A stretch of 64,000 nt of DNA, taken from contig CP063166.1 in assembly GCA_016806145.1 (NCBI GenBank), positions 5,704,001 to 5,768,000 of the forward strand. Direction: 5' to 3'. The notes under the pieces were generated by a model. It made no database searches. It saw only the letters and a list, made by a program, of their open reading frames with translations, and was not told where the DNA came from. Position numbers and translations under genes: made by a program. This document shows positions 32,281-41,397 of the stretch, piece by piece (the first letter of the stretch is position 1; every line of letters starts with the position of its first letter). Origin of the DNA: Variovorax paradoxus. GTDB taxonomy: Bacteria > Pseudomonadota > Gammaproteobacteria > Burkholderiales > Burkholderiaceae_C.

Positions 32281-33369
32281 TCAGGCGGGTTCGACGCGCA
32301 CCGTCGAGGCCGCGCGCGCCTGCGCGATCGCGAAGCGCACCGGAAGGAAGCGCTCGATCACCGCGCAGTTGGTGCGCGTGTGCTCGGTCACCTCGCTGCA
32401 GGTGAACGCCGCGCCGCGGCCGCTCTGCCAGCTCGCCAGCGCCAGCAGCAGCGCGAGCTGGTCGGCCAGGTGCGGACCGACCGCCGCCTCGCTCCTGAGG
32501 AAGCCGCGCAGTTCCTTCACCAGCGCATGCGCCACCTGCTCGGCGCTCAGCGTCTTCTCGCCGAAGGCCGTGAACACCTCGGTCACCTCGGCATGCGCGA
32601 GCGTCGCGATCAGCGCATTGCCCGGGCCTTCGTTCTGCCGCGTGGCGCCGTAGCGCAGCTGCTCGCCGGTCCAGCCCATCGCCGCGCCCAGGGTCTCGAG
32701 CTCGCGCGTCATCACATGGCGCGCGATGCCCGGCGCCAGGCATTCGGCATGGCGCTCCAGCGCCTCGCCGCGCGAGAGCAGGTCGAAGGGCTGCAGCGCG
32801 CCGGCCGCCGGCACGATCTCGGCCTCGACCTCGCCACCGCCGGCCGGATAGAAGCCATGGCGGCGCAGCTGCAGTCGCAGGTCGGCGCCGAGGCGGCGCA
32901 CCAGCGGCGCGAAGGCCCGCTCGAGGAAATGGAACGGCGGCGCCATCGGGTTGTGCGTGCCGCCGCTCAGGTGCAGCCGGCTCGCAGCACCCGCCAGCAG
33001 CAGCGGCGGCAGCACGGTCTGCAGCACCAGCATGCAGCTGCCCGCGCCCGAGATCGCGAAGCGGTACTCGCCCGCGCGCACCGGGCCCGGCGCGAAGCGC
33101 AGCGACTGCGAACCGAGCTCGGCGCCCTCGACGGCTGCGCCGCTGATGGCAGACGCCGCGTTCACGCACGCGAGGTGCTGGCGCATCAGGCCCGGCTTGG
33201 CTCGGCCGGCGCGAATCTTCTCGATGGCCATGGGCCGGCCCGTGACCATCGACAGCGCGAGGCTGGTGCGCAGGATCTGGCCGCCGCCCTCGCCTTGGGA
33301 GCCGTCGAGCATCACGGCCTGCAATGGCGCCGCATGCGCCGGTTCTCGTTGGATTTTTTCTTCTTTCAT
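32281..33369 (-). CDS. rtcA: RNA 3'-terminal phosphate cyclase RtcA
   Basis: A 362-residue enzyme that converts an RNA 3'-phosphate to a 2',3'-cyclic phosphate using ATP. DGSQGEGGGQILRTSLALS at the N-terminus is the family signature. The adenylated His is in HLADQ (His300), and the insert domain is present. It is the last gene of the RNA-repair set, 66 bp after the nucleotidyltransferase gene. In known systems it makes ends suitable for RtcB or protects RNA ends. Confidence 0.93.
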   Translation of the reverse strand: MKEEKIQREPAHAAPLQAVMLDGSQGEGGGQILRTSLALSMVTGRPMAIEKIRAGRAKPGLMRQHLACVNAASAISGAAVEGAELGSQSLRFAPGPVRAGEYRFAISGAGSCMLVLQTVLPPLLLAGAASRLHLSGGTHNPMAPPFHFLERAFAPLVRRLGADLRLQLRRHGFYPAGGGEVEAEIVPAAGALQPFDLLSRGEALERHAECLAPGIARHVMTRELETLGAAMGWTGEQLRYGATRQNEGPGNALIATLAHAEVTEVFTAFGEKTLSAEQVAHALVKELRGFLRSEAAVGPHLADQLALLLALASWQSGRGAAFTCSEVTEHTRTNCAVIERFLPVRFAIAQARAASTVRVEPA

Positions 33370-33435: not shown

Positions 33436-34314
33436 TCAGCCGCAACCCTGCGACTCGTGGCGCACCGCGCCCTTCGCATCGCCGCCCCCGAAACGCAGCA
33501 CCGTGTCGCTCAGGAAGGCATCGAGCCCCGACGCATCGGCCGGCGGCAGCGCCGTCAGCGGTTCGGCCGCATGCGCGGCCAGCTCCGCCTCGATGAAGGC
33601 ATGGATGCCCGGCCAGCGCGGGCTGGTCGCGGCCTCGCCCGCGCGCATCTTCACCTCGAGCAGCGCGTTGATCTCGTCGATCAGGGCGGCGTCGCGCACC
33701 GCATCGAGCGTGTGCTGCGCGAGGTCGGCGAAACGCATCGGCGGCACGCCGGGCCGCATGCGGATCCAGCGCGCGGCCAGCAGCGGTCGCAGCACGTAGA
33801 GGTACTTCTTGTAGCGCACCGTCTCGGCCTGCAGGTGCTCGCGGAAGTTCTTCTTCGCCATCGAGGCGTAGTGGTGCCAGCCGCGCGCATTGGAGAACAC
33901 CGCCTCCGACAGCGCGCGAAAGCGCGGCATCGCCTGCGCGTCCTCGCGGTAGACGATCGGCGAGCGCAGCCACTCGAGCAGCGTCGGGTTCGACTCGCGC
34001 ATCAGCCCCAGCGCCTTGCGCAGTTCCCAGCCGTTGATGTCGAGATCGCCGCTGATCGGCAGCTCGATCACGTCGCGCCGCGGCGTCACCGTGAGGTACC
34101 ACGGCAGGCGGTTCACGTAGATGAAGCGCACGTCGTAGTCGCTGTCGGGCGAGGCGAAGCCCCAGCCGCGGCTGCCCGATTCGCAGGCAAACAGCACCGT
34201 GACCTCGTGCCGGGCCTCGATGGCGGCGAGTTCCTCCATGATCTGCGCGCGCATGGCGGGCTCGACCGGGTGGGCCGAGCGGATGCGTTCTTCTTCATGC
34301 CGTTGCGGTTTCAT
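33436..34314 (-). CDS. Stand-alone nucleotidyltransferase, predicted RNA-repair NTase
   Basis: A 292-residue protein of the predicted nucleotidyltransferase family that accompanies RNA ligases. The polymerase-beta-like core has the GSRGWGF motif (about residue 48) and DSDYDVRFIYV with the metal Asp pair. A helical C-terminal region carries KKYLYVLRPLLAARWI. The ATG at 34314 has an AAGGA ribosome site 6 bases upstream. It probably adds nucleotides or nucleotidyl groups to damaged RNA ends. Comparative genomics (Burroughs and Aravind 2016) linked such NTases with RtcB systems; the exact RNA substrate here is unknown. Confidence 0.83.
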   Translation of the reverse strand: MKPQRHEEERIRSAHPVEPAMRAQIMEELAAIEARHEVTVLFACESGSRGWGFASPDSDYDVRFIYVNRLPWYLTVTPRRDVIELPISGDLDINGWELRKALGLMRESNPTLLEWLRSPIVYREDAQAMPRFRALSEAVFSNARGWHHYASMAKKNFREHLQAETVRYKKYLYVLRPLLAARWIRMRPGVPPMRFADLAQHTLDAVRDAALIDEINALLEVKMRAGEAATSPRWPGIHAFIEAELAAHAAEPLTALPPADASGLDAFLSDTVLRFGGGDAKGAVRHESQGCG

Positions 34315-34341
34315 CGTTGTCCTTTCCCTGTCGTTCGTCAT

Positions 34342-35992: not shown

Positions 35993-37219
35993 CTAACCCT
36001 TCACGCACACCACCTGCTTGAGCGTGTAGACCACCTCCACCAGGTCCTTCTGCGCCTCCATCACCGCGTCGATGTCCTTGTAGGCCATCGGGATCTCGTC
36101 GATCACGTCGGCGTCCTTGCGGCATTCCACGCCCTCGGTCGCGGCGATCTGGTCGGCGATCGTGAACAGCTTCTTCGCCTTGGTACGGCTCATCTTTCGA
36201 CCGGCGCCGTGGCTGCAGCTCATGAAGCTCTCGGGGTTGCCCTTGCCGCGCACGATGTAGCTCTTGGCGCCCATGCTGCCGGGAATGATCCCGAGCTCGC
36301 CGGCCTTCGCGCTCACCGCGCCCTTGCGGGTCACGAGCACGTCCTCGCCGAAATGCGTTTCGCGGCTCACGTAGTTGTGGTGGCAGTTCACCGCTTCCAC
36401 ATGCGCCTCGAAGGGCTTCGCGATGACCTTGCGCGCGGCCGCGACCACGCGCTGCATCATCACCTCGCGGTTCGCACGCGCGAACTTCTGGGCCCAGCCC
36501 ACCGCGCGCACGTAGTCGCCGAAGTACCGGGCGCCTTCCTCGAAGTACGCCAGGTCCTGGTCGGGCAGGTTGCGCTGATGCAGTTGCGCGTCCTTCTTCG
36601 CGAGTTCGATGAAGTGCGTGCCGATCGCGTTGCCCACGCCACGCGAACCCGAATGCAGCATGAACCACACGGCGCCCGCCTCATCGAGGCAGACCTCGAT
36701 GAAGTGGTTGCCCGTACCGAGCGTTCCCAGGTGCTTGTGGTTGTTCGTGTTCGAAAGGCGCGGGTAGTCCTCGCAGATCGCATCGAACTCATCCACCAGC
36801 TTGGCCCAGGCAGCGTCGGTTTCGTCGGGTGGCGTTTCCCACGAGCCCTTGTCGCGGCCCATGCGCTTGGGGTTCGAGCCGTGCGGCACGGCCTTCTCGA
36901 TCGCCGAGCGCAGCGGGCCCAGGTTGTCGGGCAGGTCGTTGGCATGCAGCGTGGTCTTGCACGCCATCATTCCGCAGCCGATGTCCACGCCCACCGCGGC
37001 CGGGATGATGGCCTTGAAGGTCGGGATCACCGAACCCACGGTCGCGCCGATGCCGTAGTGCACGTCGGGCATGGCCGCGATGTGCTTGAACACGATCGGC
37101 AGGCGCGCGGCGTTCTCGAGCTGCTTGCGCGCTTCGTCTTCCACGGGCACGCCGCGGGTCCACATCTTCACGGGCACGCCGTTGGTCACTTCGTGCAGGT
37201 CGTAGTTCTGTTGTTTCAT
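35993..37219 (-). CDS. rtcB: RNA-splicing ligase RtcB
   Basis: A 408-residue GTP/Mn-dependent ligase joining 2',3'-cyclic-phosphate or 3'-phosphate ends to 5'-OH ends. The metal Cys is Cys82 in GVDIGCGM. The guanylylated His is His337 in SCSHGAGRKMS. Other conserved segments are PDVHYGIGATVGS and LGTGNHFIEV. The length is that of the E. coli enzyme. The GGAGAG ribosome site is 7-8 bases from the ATG. It lies 146 bp downstream of the slipin gene in the sigma54-driven operon. Confidence 0.96.
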   Translation of the reverse strand: MKQQNYDLHEVTNGVPVKMWTRGVPVEDEARKQLENAARLPIVFKHIAAMPDVHYGIGATVGSVIPTFKAIIPAAVGVDIGCGMMACKTTLHANDLPDNLGPLRSAIEKAVPHGSNPKRMGRDKGSWETPPDETDAAWAKLVDEFDAICEDYPRLSNTNNHKHLGTLGTGNHFIEVCLDEAGAVWFMLHSGSRGVGNAIGTHFIELAKKDAQLHQRNLPDQDLAYFEEGARYFGDYVRAVGWAQKFARANREVMMQRVVAAARKVIAKPFEAHVEAVNCHHNYVSRETHFGEDVLVTRKGAVSAKAGELGIIPGSMGAKSYIVRGKGNPESFMSCSHGAGRKMSRTKAKKLFTIADQIAATEGVECRKDADVIDEIPMAYKDIDAVMEAQKDLVEVVYTLKQVVCVKG

Positions 37220-37365: not shown

Positions 37366-38517
37366 TCAAGCCCCGTTCGGCCGCAGCGTCACGAGCCCGT
37401 TGAGCACCTGGTCCAGGCCGCCGACCACCGAGATCTTGTCGATCCGCTCGGCCACGCGCTCCAGCGTCTCGAGTTCCTTCATCCGCAACGCGACGGGGTT
37501 GCCCTCCATCACCTTCGCGGTGTTCAGAAGCGAGCGCGTGGCCGCGGTTTCCTCGCGGCGGCGGATCACGTTGGCCTGGGCCGATTTCTCGGCCTCCACC
37601 ACCTGCGCGAGGATGGTCTTCATCTCGCCCGGCAGGATGATGTCCTTCACGCCCACGCTCTCGAGCACGACACCCGAACCCTCGAGCCGTTCGCGCACCT
37701 GCGCCAGCACCGTCTGATCGATGGCTGCCTTGTTCTCCAGCAGCGCATCGAGCGTTTGTTCGCCCACCGCGGCGCGCAGACCGAACTGCAATTCGCGGTA
37801 GACATGCTCGGCCGGCTTCGGCATCTGGGCCAGGGCCTGCCGCACGTCGGCGAAGCGCCACACCGCCGACAGGTTCAGCCGCAGCCCCACCTTGTCGCGG
37901 GTCAGGATCTCCTGGCCGCTCACTTCCGCGATCTGCGAACGCAGGTCGATGCAGCTCACCGCCACCTGGCGGTTGAAGCGCCAGAAGCCGTGGTTGCCCG
38001 CCGGCAGCAGCGCCTGCATCTGCCCTTCGAGCGTCAGCACGCCAACGTGGAACTCGGGCACCTGCACCAGCAGCACGCCTTCGAGGCCCTGCACCGCACG
38101 CGGACGCAGCGCCACGCTCTGCAGCTTCGCCAGCAGATCGGCCGGCAGGCGCGCATCGACCGCCACGTCGACCACGTCGACGCGCTGCTCGCGCAACCCG
38201 CGCCAGTACAGCTTGCGCGTTGCGGGCGGCAGGATCTGCACCAGCACACCGTCCTCGTGGCGCAGGCCCACCTGCGTCTCGCCCAAGGAAACCTGCACGA
38301 ACTCGCGTGCCACCAGTTCGGGCTCGCGCGCCAGGAAATAGTCGGCCAGCTCGTGCTCGAACACCGGCTCGCCGAGCGCGAAGCGCTCCAGCTTCACGGT
38401 ATCGAAGCCCGCGAACACGCGGTGCTTTCCCGGGCCGAGCAGTTGCTCGAAGTCGCCGTTGCGCAGCAGCAGTGCGCGCTCGTTCTTCTTGACGGTGATC
38501 TGGTGGAAGCCCAACAT
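37366..38517 (-). CDS. SPFH/Band-7 slipin-family protein
   Basis: A 383-residue SPFH-domain protein (core about residues 100-310; FHQITVKKNERALLLRNGDFEQLLGPG at the N-terminus, GSGVVLESVGVKDIILPGEMKTIL in the SPFH core, and a C-terminal coiled segment rich in Glu/Arg). No N-terminal transmembrane anchor is evident, unlike membrane stomatins, so it may act as a soluble scaffold. It is the first protein gene behind the sigma54 promoter and the tRNA-like RNA. Comparative genomics has proposed Band-7 modules as scaffolds binding a tRNA-like RNA in RtcB systems. The GGAGAG ribosome site supports the ATG at 38517. Confidence 0.88.
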   Translation of the reverse strand: MLGFHQITVKKNERALLLRNGDFEQLLGPGKHRVFAGFDTVKLERFALGEPVFEHELADYFLAREPELVAREFVQVSLGETQVGLRHEDGVLVQILPPATRKLYWRGLREQRVDVVDVAVDARLPADLLAKLQSVALRPRAVQGLEGVLLVQVPEFHVGVLTLEGQMQALLPAGNHGFWRFNRQVAVSCIDLRSQIAEVSGQEILTRDKVGLRLNLSAVWRFADVRQALAQMPKPAEHVYRELQFGLRAAVGEQTLDALLENKAAIDQTVLAQVRERLEGSGVVLESVGVKDIILPGEMKTILAQVVEAEKSAQANVIRRREETAATRSLLNTAKVMEGNPVALRMKELETLERVAERIDKISVVGGLDQVLNGLVTLRPNGA

Positions 38518-38815
38518 TTCTTCTCTCCTTCTTCGCTTGTCGTTCGTTTCGTCGTCTTGTTCTCGGCAATGAATCCAGACCCTCGAAAGGGCAGGCGGCG
38601 GGCCTCGCGGTCGCCAGGGGCTGCAGCGCGGCGCTCGCGCGGTTCGGTGGTGCCTCCTGTCGTCGCGATCGCAACGCCCTCCTCACCGTCCTCGCCGTCG
38701 ATGGCCGCGCGCAATTCCCTGATGCACGCACGGTGCGCAAGCCGCCTGCGCTTGGCACGGTGTCGCGCGCCGCAGAACCGGGGCCCTGCGCCATCGCTCC
38801 GGTGTGCCGGGGCGG

Positions 38816-38854
38816 GGGGCTTTCGCCCCATCAGATGGCGGTGCACGCACCGCC
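38816..38854 (-). other. Two hairpins 3' of the tRNA-like RNA, one with a GNRA tetraloop
   Basis: Minus-strand GGCGGTGC pairs with GCACCGCC (38837-38854). Then GGGGC-GAAA-GCCCC (38816-38829) forms a five-pair stem closed by a GAAA tetraloop. They start directly after the tRNA-like body. No T-run follows, so they are not intrinsic terminators; they may protect the 3' end or bind protein. Confidence 0.65.
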
Positions 38855-38856
38855 GG

Positions 38857-38920
38857 GTTTTTCGCGGGAATCGAACCCGCAACGCCATGTGATCCACACG
38901 GTGCTCAACCATGAGCAAAC
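38857..38920 (-). ncRNA. tRNA-like noncoding RNA of the slipin-RtcB system
   Basis: Minus-strand order: GTTT; a D-arm with stem GCTC/GAGC and loop ATGGTT; one A; an anticodon arm with stem CCGTG/CATGG (one G-U) and a 7-base loop TGGATCA; a 4-base variable loop; a canonical T-arm GCGGG-TTCGATT-CCCGC; and GAAAAAC. It is not a decoding tRNA: loop position 33 is G instead of U, position 37 is C, there is no 7-pair acceptor stem (only GTTT/AAAC can pair) and no encoded CCA. A 5' hairpin overlaps it by one to two bases. Position directly behind the RtcR-type promoter and before slipin and rtcB matches the tRNA-like molecule proposed from comparative genomics to partner Band-7 proteins. Confidence 0.8.
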
Positions 38921-38935
38921 TGGATCGAGTCCAGT
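38919..38935 (-). other. Hairpin abutting the 5' side of the tRNA-like RNA
   Basis: Minus-strand ACTGGA pairs with TCCAGT around the loop CTCGA (six pairs). Its 3' arm overlaps the GTTT that could pair as an acceptor remnant. The two pairings are therefore mutually exclusive, at least in part, which could be a conformational switch or a processing signal. Confidence 0.6.
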
Positions 38936-39050
38936 CGCCAGGCAGTTCAACAGCGGCATACCGCCGACCCAAGACAGGTCTGGCCTGCGGCACCGGACCG
39001 CTTTCATGCGGTACCTGCGAGCGGATGAACTGCATCCGGACGGGTTCTTC

Positions 39051-39068
39051 ATTGCAGGCCGCGTGCCA
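39051..39068 (-). promoter_or_regulatory. Sigma54 (-24/-12) promoter of the rtc operon
   Basis: On the minus strand TGGCACG is followed by CGGC and CTGCA. This gives the diagnostic GG-N10-GC spacing, with GG at 39067-39066 and GC at 39055-39054. The consensus is TGGCAC-N5-TTGCA. Transcription should start near 39042 and run through the tRNA-like RNA into slipin and rtcB. The divergent rtcR encodes the matching activator. Confidence 0.85.
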
Positions 39069-39126
39069 GGTTGCGGCAATCCGCGGCACGGAGCGGCCGG
39101 AAGCGCGCAAGTCATTGATATTCCTG

Positions 39127-39143
39127 GGGAAAAGTTCTTTCCC
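39127..39143. promoter_or_regulatory. Candidate RtcR enhancer site
   Basis: GGGAAA and TTTCCC arms with a 5-base spacer lie about 85-100 bp upstream of the predicted sigma54 start, a normal position for an activator-binding site. It is also just upstream of the rtcR -35 box, which would permit autoregulation. Confidence 0.5.
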
Positions 39144-39147
39144 TTCT

Positions 39148-39177
39148 TTGACACCTCGCCGCCCATCCGGCTAGCAT
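39148..39177 (+). promoter_or_regulatory. Sigma70 promoter candidate for rtcR
   Basis: TTGACA (39148-39153) is a perfect -35 box. An 18-base spacer leads to TAGCAT (39172-39177, four of six consensus). The rtcR ATG follows 36 bp later. Confidence 0.55.
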
Positions 39178-39213
39178 TCAGAAATATTTATAAATTCAGC
39201 TAGTTTCTTATCC

Positions 39214-40824
<1,611 letters not shown>

Positions 40825-40842: not shown

Positions 40843-41397
40843 ATGGCCATCTCCGCATTCGTCGTCAAGGTCCCCGCCGCCGAGCCGATGGTCGAGGACC
40901 TGCGGCGGCACCACGACGCAACGGTCGCGCTCGGCGTGCCGGCGCACATCACGCTACTGGTGCCCTTCATGGACCCCGCGCTGATCACGGCGGAAGTGCT
41001 GACACGCGCACGGCAGGTGCTCGACGGCACCCGCGCGTTCTCCTTCGTGCTCGGCAAGCTCGGGCGCTTTCCAGCGACGGCCTACCTCGCGCCCGAACCC
41101 GCGGCGCCCTTCATCTCGATGACATTGGCGCTCGTCGAGGCCTTTCCGGACTTCCGGCCCTACGGCGGCGAGCACCAGGGCGTGGTGCCTCATCTCACCG
41201 TGGCCCACGGAAGCGCGAGCAGCGCGGAAGCAGCCGCGGGCCAACTGCAGGCGCGGCTGCTGGCTTCGGGCGCCATTCGCGCGGAATGCACGCAGGTCGC
41301 GCTGATCGAGAACTCGACGGGACACTGGAAGGACCTGCATGTCTTTCGACTGCCCGGCCTCGCGCAAACCGCGCCTCCTAACGATCGAATCCCATGA
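40843..41397 (+). CDS. 2H phosphoesterase, LigT/2'-5' RNA ligase-like
   Basis: A 184-residue protein with two HxT motifs, His35/Thr37 (AHITLLVPF) and His117/Thr119 (PHLTVAHG), the catalytic pair of the 2H superfamily. Members open cyclic phosphates or join/hydrolyse 2'-5' RNA bonds. It follows rtcR by 18 bp and overlaps the exonuclease gene by 4 bases. It may act on 2',3'-cyclic phosphate ends, either as a healing enzyme or by competing with RtcB. This functional link is inference from position. Confidence 0.88.

What the first reader, a model, noticed from the sequence alone, without database searches (positions are those of the whole stretch)
38816..38935. tRNA-like noncoding RNA at the head of a slipin-RtcB operon
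The minus strand folds by eye into complete D, anticodon and T arms (stems GCTC/GAGC, CCGTG/CATGG, GCGGG/CCCGC). It lacks U33, a purine at position 37, a 7-pair acceptor stem and CCA, so it cannot be a normal tRNA. It is framed by a 5' hairpin and two 3' hairpins and transcribed from a sigma54 promoter together with slipin and rtcB. Comparative genomics (Burroughs and Aravind 2016, as I recall it) predicted a tRNA-like RNA partner for SPFH/Band-7 modules in RNA repair; this looks like a betaproteobacterial example. The short GTTT/AAAC acceptor remnant competes with the upstream hairpin, which suggests a switch or a decoy for tRNA-cleaving toxins.
Basis: partly seen in the sequence, partly recalled or inferred. 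Interest (0 to 1): 0.92.

Follow-up and report, generated by a model that had tools for sequence, protein, structure and literature searches.

The report
tRNA-mimic RNA in an RNA-repair operon
The stretch encodes a structured RNA that descends from tRNA but can no longer work as one, kept by selection next to the gene of a ring-forming protein and an RNA-mending enzyme in many bacteria; this kind of RNA was predicted in 2016, and the comparison done here makes its function testable.

Summary
On the minus strand (38857-38920) D, anticodon and T arms fold better than all 200 shuffles, and a covariance model built from 56 relatives, the window's genus left out, finds it at E=4.2e-11 (next best in 64 kb: 1.6). 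It is not a tRNA: ARAGORN and Rfam do not call it; U33, purine 37, CCA and a 7-pair acceptor are missing. The element goes with the slipin/Band-7 gene (75 of 80 loci), not with RtcR or RtcB. The anticodon stem is kept, the loop is not: 21 of 56 lack a 7-base loop. In 12 of 23 slipin loci with no rtcR beside them, same-strand tRNA genes lie just upstream. The kind is known: Burroughs and Aravind 2016 predicted it (recalled; [quoted passage not shown] Most likely it is the RNA partner of a ring- or vault-like slipin assembly serving RtcB; binding and expression are untested. The "switch" is not supported; the decoy idea is untested.

The parts
39053..39068 (-). sigma54-type promoter TGGCACGCGGCCTGCA
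   Evidence: Exact pattern, 1 match in 64 kb, 0.22 expected. A sigma54-like motif lies between rtcR and the first T arm in 57 of 57 rtcR-linked loci by a loose pattern, 56 of 57 by a tighter one.
38951..38999 (-). conserved 5' stem-loop CCGGUGC-stem-G(C/U)AUGCCGC
   Evidence: Model R2, built from 32 relatives without Variovorax or window, finds it at E=1.5e-5, best of 64 kb. Against: folded alone it is no more stable than shuffles (z=-0.20, 81 of 200 as good).
38919..38935 (-). hairpin ACTGGACTCGATCCAGT, probable worn-down first tRNA-like domain (TLD-A); many other loci have a full T arm at this place
   Evidence: Folds at -6.0 kcal/mol, z=-2.8; stem kept in Variovorax with GGA/TCC to GAA/TTC exchange; position by comparison with relatives. 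The assignment is inference.
38857..38920 (-). second tRNA-like domain (TLD-B): weak acceptor GTTT/AAAC, D arm 38916-38903, anticodon arm 38901-38885, T arm 38880-38864
   Evidence: Held-out model R1 hit 38928-38855, 41.5 bits, E=4.2e-11; fold z=-3.44.
38837..38854 (-). 3' hairpin 1, GGCGGTGC-GT-GCACCGCC
   Evidence: -12.2 kcal/mol
38816..38829 (-). 3' hairpin 2, GGGGC-GAAA-GCCCC; many relatives show GGTC-GAAA-GACC here
   Evidence: -10 kcal/mol; relatives by eye
37366..38517 (-). slipin / Band-7 (SPFH) protein, 383 aa
   Evidence: Pfam Band_7 1e-27; model and fold matches
35993..37219 (-). RtcB RNA ligase
   Evidence: Pfam RtcB 1.1e-128
33436..34341 (-). RlaP nucleotidyltransferase of RNA-repair pathways
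   Evidence: Pfam RlaP 2.7e-92
32281..33369 (-). RtcA RNA 3'-phosphate cyclase
   Evidence: Pfam RTC 2.5e-79
39214..40824 (+). divergent RtcR, sigma54 activator
   Evidence: NCBIfam RNA_repair_RtcR 5.9e-248, Pfam RtcR 1.5e-80

Best explanation
It is a noncoding RNA of tRNA descent that serves as the RNA partner of the slipin it precedes. Damaged tRNA activates RtcR, sigma54 polymerase transcribes the leader RNA with slipin, rtcB and the rest, the leader folds into a 5' stem-loop plus a tRNA-shaped module (tandem in many species, one in Variovorax), and a slipin ring or vault-like shell holds it by its tRNA elbow, so that RtcB, RtcA and RlaP work on real tRNAs at a scaffold built for that shape. 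The anticodon arm is only a structural strut. Shown by sequence: the promoter motif, the tRNA-like fold under selection, the loss of tRNA identity, the tie to slipin. Inferred: that slipin binds it, that it is a scaffold or placeholder rather than a decoy, and that it is cut out of the mRNA.
For: Compensating changes in acceptor, anticodon and T stems (56 sequences: 203 cells changed on both sides against 61.7 in shuffles; score 0.484 against 0.139; slid controls 0.056-0.118). Held-out hit in the window and in 7 of 7 other Variovorax loci. Hit upstream of slipin in 75 of 80 loci (35 of the 80 are seeds of the model) and in 20 of 21 phylum-wide loci (13 of the 21 are seeds; the miss, L133, has no upstream sequence). 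0 of 12 loci of other SPFH proteins. rtcR-rtcB loci with no slipin in the fetched stretch, L135, L139, L140: no hit; rtcR plus slipin, L137: two hits (L137 is the same genome as seed L123); rtcR plus a Ro60-vWA protein, L138: no hit. Of 23 loci with no rtcR found within 1.3 kb, 22 have the RNA. Anticodon stem 94.2% paired while loops vary. The slipin model matches stomatin, HflK/C, prohibitin, erlin and major vault protein, families that form rings or shells (PMC12624060, start of abstract in the listing; vault: PMC13174449, passages). Damaged tRNAs activate RtcR in Salmonella (PMC7790460, title, start of abstract and passages).
Against: No binding, expression or phenotype data. No intrinsic terminator was found on the minus strand of 38500-39250, so a separate RNA needs processing. 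Four of 80 loci with upstream sequence lack an R1 hit (L044, L068, L078, L086); L068 and L078 keep slipin and the 5' stem-loop without the tRNA-like part. E. coli keeps little more than a T-arm hairpin, so the full tRNA shape is dispensable in some lineages. 25 of 56 TLD-B loops look like normal anticodon loops.
Confidence: 0.5

Rival explanations
1. Cis-acting leader: the tRNA-like fold is a processing or control element of the slipin-rtcB mRNA, for example an RNase P/tRNA-enzyme cutting site or a sensor that sets slipin synthesis by tRNA supply or damage.
For: In the 75 loci with a hit it lies 5' of slipin on the same strand; no terminator in between in the window. First domains with T arm and an encoded CCA near the expected place in 53 of 88 resemble what RNase P accepts (recalled). 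A T-arm hairpin alone remains in E. coli.
Against: A cutting site does not need a covarying anticodon stem and a full D arm in the second domain, and many second domains lack CCA and a full acceptor.
Confidence: 0.2
2. Decoy: it soaks up tRNA-targeting nucleases or is a sacrificial substrate.
For: The window's anticodon loop can close to three bases, and 21 of 56 relatives have no 7-base loop, so they might bind but not be cut. A comparable idea is discussed for the YrlA tRNA-like domain, which was not cleaved in Salmonella (PMC7790460, passages).
Against: 25 of 56 have normal-looking loops with U33 and purine 37, which could be cut; one element per operon is little for a sponge; the decoy idea does not explain the tie to slipin.
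Confidence: 0.15
3. Relic: the leftover of tRNA arrays that once preceded slipin, without a present function in the window.
For: tRNA genes upstream of slipin in 12 of 23 loci with no rtcR beside it; Variovorax has only a hairpin for its first domain and no conserved acceptor.
Against: Stems are kept by compensating change across classes; Variovorax keeps D, anticodon and T arms; sigma54-like motif in 57 of 57 rtcR-linked loci.
Confidence: 0.08
4. A decoding tRNA with odd features.
For: Rfam tRNA scores above cut-off for the second domain in 8 of 9 relatives scanned; ARAGORN calls many as tRNAs with scattered anticodons.
Against: The window fails the tRNA tests. Across the family CCA in 2 of 108, 7-pair acceptor in 4 of 56, 15 different anticodons among 25 plausible loops.
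Confidence: 0.02

Closest known systems
tRNA-like ncRNA of SPFH/Band-7 RNA-repair modules (Burroughs and Aravind 2016, NAR 44:8525)
   Same: Same operon partners (SPFH protein, RtcB) and tRNA-like fold, as recalled from the abstract; [quoted passage not shown]
   Different: Could not be compared in detail: paper not held. Whether it describes the tandem, the 5' stem-loop, the free anticodon arm or the tRNA arrays is unknown to me.
Bacterial Y RNAs (YrlA) with Rsr/Ro60 in rsr-yrlBA-rtcBA operons
   Same: tRNA-mimicking RNA in an RtcR-controlled RtcB operon (PMC7790460, passages); the partner protein could act as scaffold.
   Different: Neighbour is slipin, not a TROVE protein; the genome has no TROVE match; here an anticodon arm is kept, and the mimic is often tandem.
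Anabaena trn operon and TrcR regulon
   Same: A silent tRNA array, rtcB and a slipin gene (alr0740) answer to one repressor, relieved under translational stress (PMC10272220, passages).
   Different: trn lies on a plasmid and the others on the chromosome there; in my array-type loci tRNAs, tRNA-like RNA and slipin are adjacent. No RtcR in Anabaena (same passages).
Eukaryotic vault (MVP, TEP1, vault RNA)
   Different: The other MVP rows align residues from about 133 on only; Pfam finds Band_7 domains but no vault family among 53 slipins; no particle of this protein was seen in anything I read.

Membership tests
tRNA (Rfam RF00005) | score above gathering cut-off / ARAGORN call | tested here: not met
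   second domains of 8 of 9 relatives are above the cut-off
tRNA (Rfam RF00005) | 7-pair acceptor, discriminator and CCA | tested here: not met
   at most 4 pairs, no CCA in the window; family: 4 of 56 and 2 of 108
tRNA (Rfam RF00005) | U33 and purine 37 in a 7-base anticodon loop | tested here: not met
   G33 and C37
SPFH/Band-7-linked tRNA-like ncRNA (Burroughs and Aravind 2016) | same operon as SPFH gene and rtcB | tested here: met
   relatives
SPFH/Band-7-linked tRNA-like ncRNA (Burroughs and Aravind 2016) | conserved tRNA-like secondary structure | tested here: met
SPFH/Band-7-linked tRNA-like ncRNA (Burroughs and Aravind 2016) | match to the published sequence and structure | not testable with these tools
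   paper not held; identity of kind rests on recall and on a citing preprint
Bacterial Y RNA | TROVE/Rsr partner encoded in the genome or locus | tested here: not met
   no PF05731 match in the genome
Bacterial Y RNA | Ro-binding stem | not tested
   no Y RNA family among the five matches to E=5 in 38000-40000, but the stem was not modelled
RtcR-controlled sigma54 operon | divergent RtcR and sigma54 site before the RNA | tested here: met
   (sequence only; no transcription data)
Major vault protein (slipin) | MVP repeats before an SPFH shoulder and cap helix | tested here: inconclusive

The most novel reading that the evidence does not exclude
A bacterial tRNA repair-and-replace locus built around a vault-like RNP: an MVP-like slipin shell with a tandem tRNA mimic as its own RNA, RtcB/RtcA/RlaP to mend broken tRNAs and, in one branch, an adjacent array of spare tRNAs. 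RtcB operons would then use either TROVE plus Y RNA or MVP-like slipin plus tRNA mimic, the two halves that meet in the eukaryotic vault, whose RNA would trace back to RNA repair.
Probability: 0.2. Interest if true: 0.85.

Novelty: new member of a known kind. Interest (0 to 1): 0.5.

Why it matters
The RNA was predicted in 2016 (recalled), but my searches found no experiment on it (open-licence full texts only). A structure model, clear boundaries, a contrast set (rtcB operons without slipin) and natural variants (tandem, single, T-arm only, lost) now exist, so its role in RNA repair can be tested in harmless laboratory strains. The tRNA genes next to slipin suggest that repair and replacement of tRNAs may be one programme, as the Anabaena regulon hints. 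A tie between MVP-like proteins and RNA repair would bear on the unknown function of vaults.

Tried and rejected
Switch between acceptor and 5' hairpin: rejected, the acceptor is not kept in all Variovorax and is not in the predicted minimum. Decoding tRNA: rejected for the window. Phage or viral origin: slipin has no match at E<=1e-15 among 50,697 phage records and none confirmed in viral contigs; 9 plasmid-collection records, 7 of them 1 Mb or larger. Long-range pairing of the 5' element with the 3' flank: looked for by eye and in group alignments, not convincing, dropped. R1 as a family-specific detector: rejected, it also finds real tRNAs (38 places in the own genome; the 14 others that I checked are all ARAGORN tRNAs; 23 were not checked). 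R2 as a detector: 6 of 7 hits at E<0.001 in 200 genomes lie just upstream of slipin, the seventh (G098) and the 4 weaker hits do not; it found 6 of the 16 genomes with a full-length slipin and missed the own genome, under the stricter filters used there. With 36 loci searched directly, R2 had no hit in the six phylum-wide loci L121, L124, L127, L128, L130, L131, nor in L062, L094, L105, L107, L110, L143, L144, so the 5' element is not universal; L135, L138, L139 served as controls and had none. N-terminal part of slipin: no PDB match at E<=0.001 by Foldseek. Pfam found no domain in 8 of 10 proteins near array-type loci. The acceptor search for TLD-A used a fixed window and did not clearly beat its shuffles for 6 pairs (32 against 29.3 expected; 7 pairs: 25 against 3.6), so it is not used as evidence for the short form.

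Full report
What was claimed and what is there. All are in the sequence at those places. The 64-base domain 38857-38920 folds at -27.1 kcal/mol with z=-3.44 and no shuffle of 200 as good. It is not a tRNA gene by ARAGORN nor by Rfam (tRNA-Sec, 19.2 bits, cut-off 47). Position 32 can pair with 38 and 33 with 37, so the anticodon loop closes to GAT on a 7-pair stem.

The operon. Slipin (Band_7), RtcB, reading frames without a Pfam match, RlaP and RtcA follow on the minus strand; RtcR and a 2'-5' ligase-type (2H) protein diverge on the plus strand. A sigma54-type site lies at 39053-39068.

Relatives. In front of slipin, two T arms in tandem are common: 88 of 114 loci scanned have a second T arm 55-90 bases before the first. 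The 114 hold a few genomes twice, ten rows of the window's genus (which lack it) and L120, mis-called and counted as a miss; in L016 and L119 the second hairpin is a different one.

Structure under selection. 56 TLD-B sequences, window and Variovorax left out, near-duplicates removed, L120 and the truncated L086 dropped, and five loci with unclear assignment left out beforehand (L105, L016, L119, L044, L087), were aligned. With the cloverleaf imposed, 91.1% of cells pair (shuffled 72.2), 203 cells have changes on both sides (61.7) and the covariation score is 0.484 (0.139); slid controls give 0.056-0.118. The D stem hardly varies and says nothing; the outer acceptor pairs often fail (helix 76.2% paired). 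Related sequences weaken the shuffles as a test, but the slid controls and the held-out hit do not depend on that. The model R1 finds the window at E=4.2e-11, the next match in 64 kb has E=1.6, and 7 of 7 other Variovorax loci. Of the 80 loci, 75 have a hit upstream of slipin; L044, L068, L078 and L086 do not, and L101 has no upstream sequence. Of 21 phylum loci 20 have one, the miss lacking upstream sequence. 35 of the 80 and 13 of the 21 are seeds of R1.

What varies. TLD-B has CCA at 74-76 in 2 of 108, 7 acceptor pairs in 4 of 56, a 7-base anticodon loop in 35 of 56 by alignment columns (26 if the stem is extended as far as it pairs), of the 35 25 with U33 and purine 37 and 15 different anticodons; the other 21 have other loop lengths, GNRA and UUCG types among them. 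Pairing of the anticodon stem is 94.2%. So the arm is kept, the decoding is not. TLD-A ends in CCA near the expected place in 53 of 88. By eye it comes in a full cloverleaf form (pseudomonads and some loci of other classes) and a short form of acceptor, one small hairpin and T arm (many Burkholderiales); this was not measured.

More RNA. A 5' stem-loop CCGGUGC-stem-G(C/U)AUGCCG lies before TLD-A in 61 of 113 loci by a strict pattern. Model R2 from 32 of them (56 cells changed on both sides against 22.7, score 0.381 against 0.165, but the number of covarying pairs is no better than shuffles, 7 against 6.6, and the inner helix pairs in only 47.3% of cells) finds the held-out window at E=1.5e-5. 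In 200 genomes, 6 of 7 hits at E<0.001 lie just upstream of slipin, three of those six not used to build R2; 10 of 16 slipin genomes, the own one among them, were not found. The window's copy folded alone is no more stable than shuffles. L068 and L078 keep the 5' element without the tRNA-like part.

What the RNA goes with. Other SPFH loci: 0 of 12. rtcR-rtcB loci with no slipin in the fetched stretch: L135, L139, L140 none; rtcR with a Ro60-vWA protein, L138, none; rtcR with slipin, L137, two hits; two sub-threshold RtcR matches, L141 and L142, none. These contrast loci are few and short. 57 of the 80 loci have divergent rtcR within 1.3 kb, all 57 with a sigma54-like motif between. In the 23 others no rtcR was found there; in several the contig ends first, and in L041 rtcR lies 6 kb off. 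In 12 of these 23 there are same-strand tRNA genes within 3 kb upstream of the RNA, 55 in 47.5 kb, none on the other strand and none in the 3 kb downstream of the slipin start; in the 57 rtcR-linked loci there are none in 169 kb. They cover many isotypes (12 tRNAs in L094, 11 in L104). The element thus goes with slipin, and an old tRNA array is a likely source of it (inference). In E. coli a slipin-RlaP locus near lysC has a sigma54-type site and only a T-arm hairpin; 1620 of 5426 complete genomes hold at least 80% of that 901-base query.

Literature. Burroughs and Aravind 2016 is not held; I recall its abstract naming SPFH/Band-7 modules with a novel tRNA-like molecule. PMC13404743 (passages) cites it for MVP homologs and ncRNAs sharing an operon and for RtcB in operons with MVP homologs. 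PMC7790460 (title, start of abstract, passages; [quoted passage not shown] PMC10272220 (passages) puts a tRNA operon, rtcB and a slipin gene in one stress regulon in Anabaena. PMC13086221 (one passage) places the SPFH protein PaFlo8 in the P. aeruginosa PA14 rtc locus; the word tRNA does not occur in its main text. PMC13174449 (passages) was looked at for the vault; PMC9650030, PMC7824862 and PMC7159879 (passages) had nothing on this RNA.

Judgement. That this is a selected, tRNA-derived noncoding RNA of slipin loci I hold at about 0.95. That it is the slipin's RNA partner in RtcB repair I hold at 0.5: co-occurrence is shown, binding and function are inferred. The kind is known; tandem build, free anticodon arm, 5' stem-loop, array-type loci and the shrunken E. 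coli form may be new, which I cannot check against the 2016 paper.

Noticed in passing
L094, L104, L041, L043, L061, L062, L107, L087 upstream of slipin: Same-strand runs of 3-12 tRNA genes shortly before the tRNA-like RNA in slipin loci with no rtcR beside them: a possible stress store of spare tRNAs.
   Followed up: partly
L143:4450-6922 and L144:2957-6910: E. coli and Citrobacter carry a slipin-RlaP locus near lysC with a sigma54-type site and only a T-arm hairpin; at least 80% of the 901-base query in 1620 of 5426 complete E. coli genomes.
   Followed up: partly
L068:7610-7658, L078:7615-7663: Pseudomonas loci without the tRNA-like domains that keep the 5' stem-loop.
   Followed up: partly
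L032:9360-9414, L033:9375-9395, L034:9376-9396, L035:9379-9399: Weak extra T-arm-like matches between slipin and rtcB in Variovorax relatives (19.9-20.3 bits), not reported in the window.
   Followed up: no
relatives, 3' of TLD-B (for example L067, L089): A motif like ACCCGCCGG, similar to the start of the 5' element, recurs behind the tRNA-like RNA (a loose pattern in 77 of 113, without a chance control); possible repeated protein-binding site.
   Followed up: partly
L094:9193-10290, L109:9191-10318: An AAA ATPase gene follows slipin in two loci with no rtcR beside them.
   Followed up: no
window 40843-41397: 2'-5' RNA ligase-type (2H) protein directly behind rtcR, possibly part of the repair set.
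   Followed up: no
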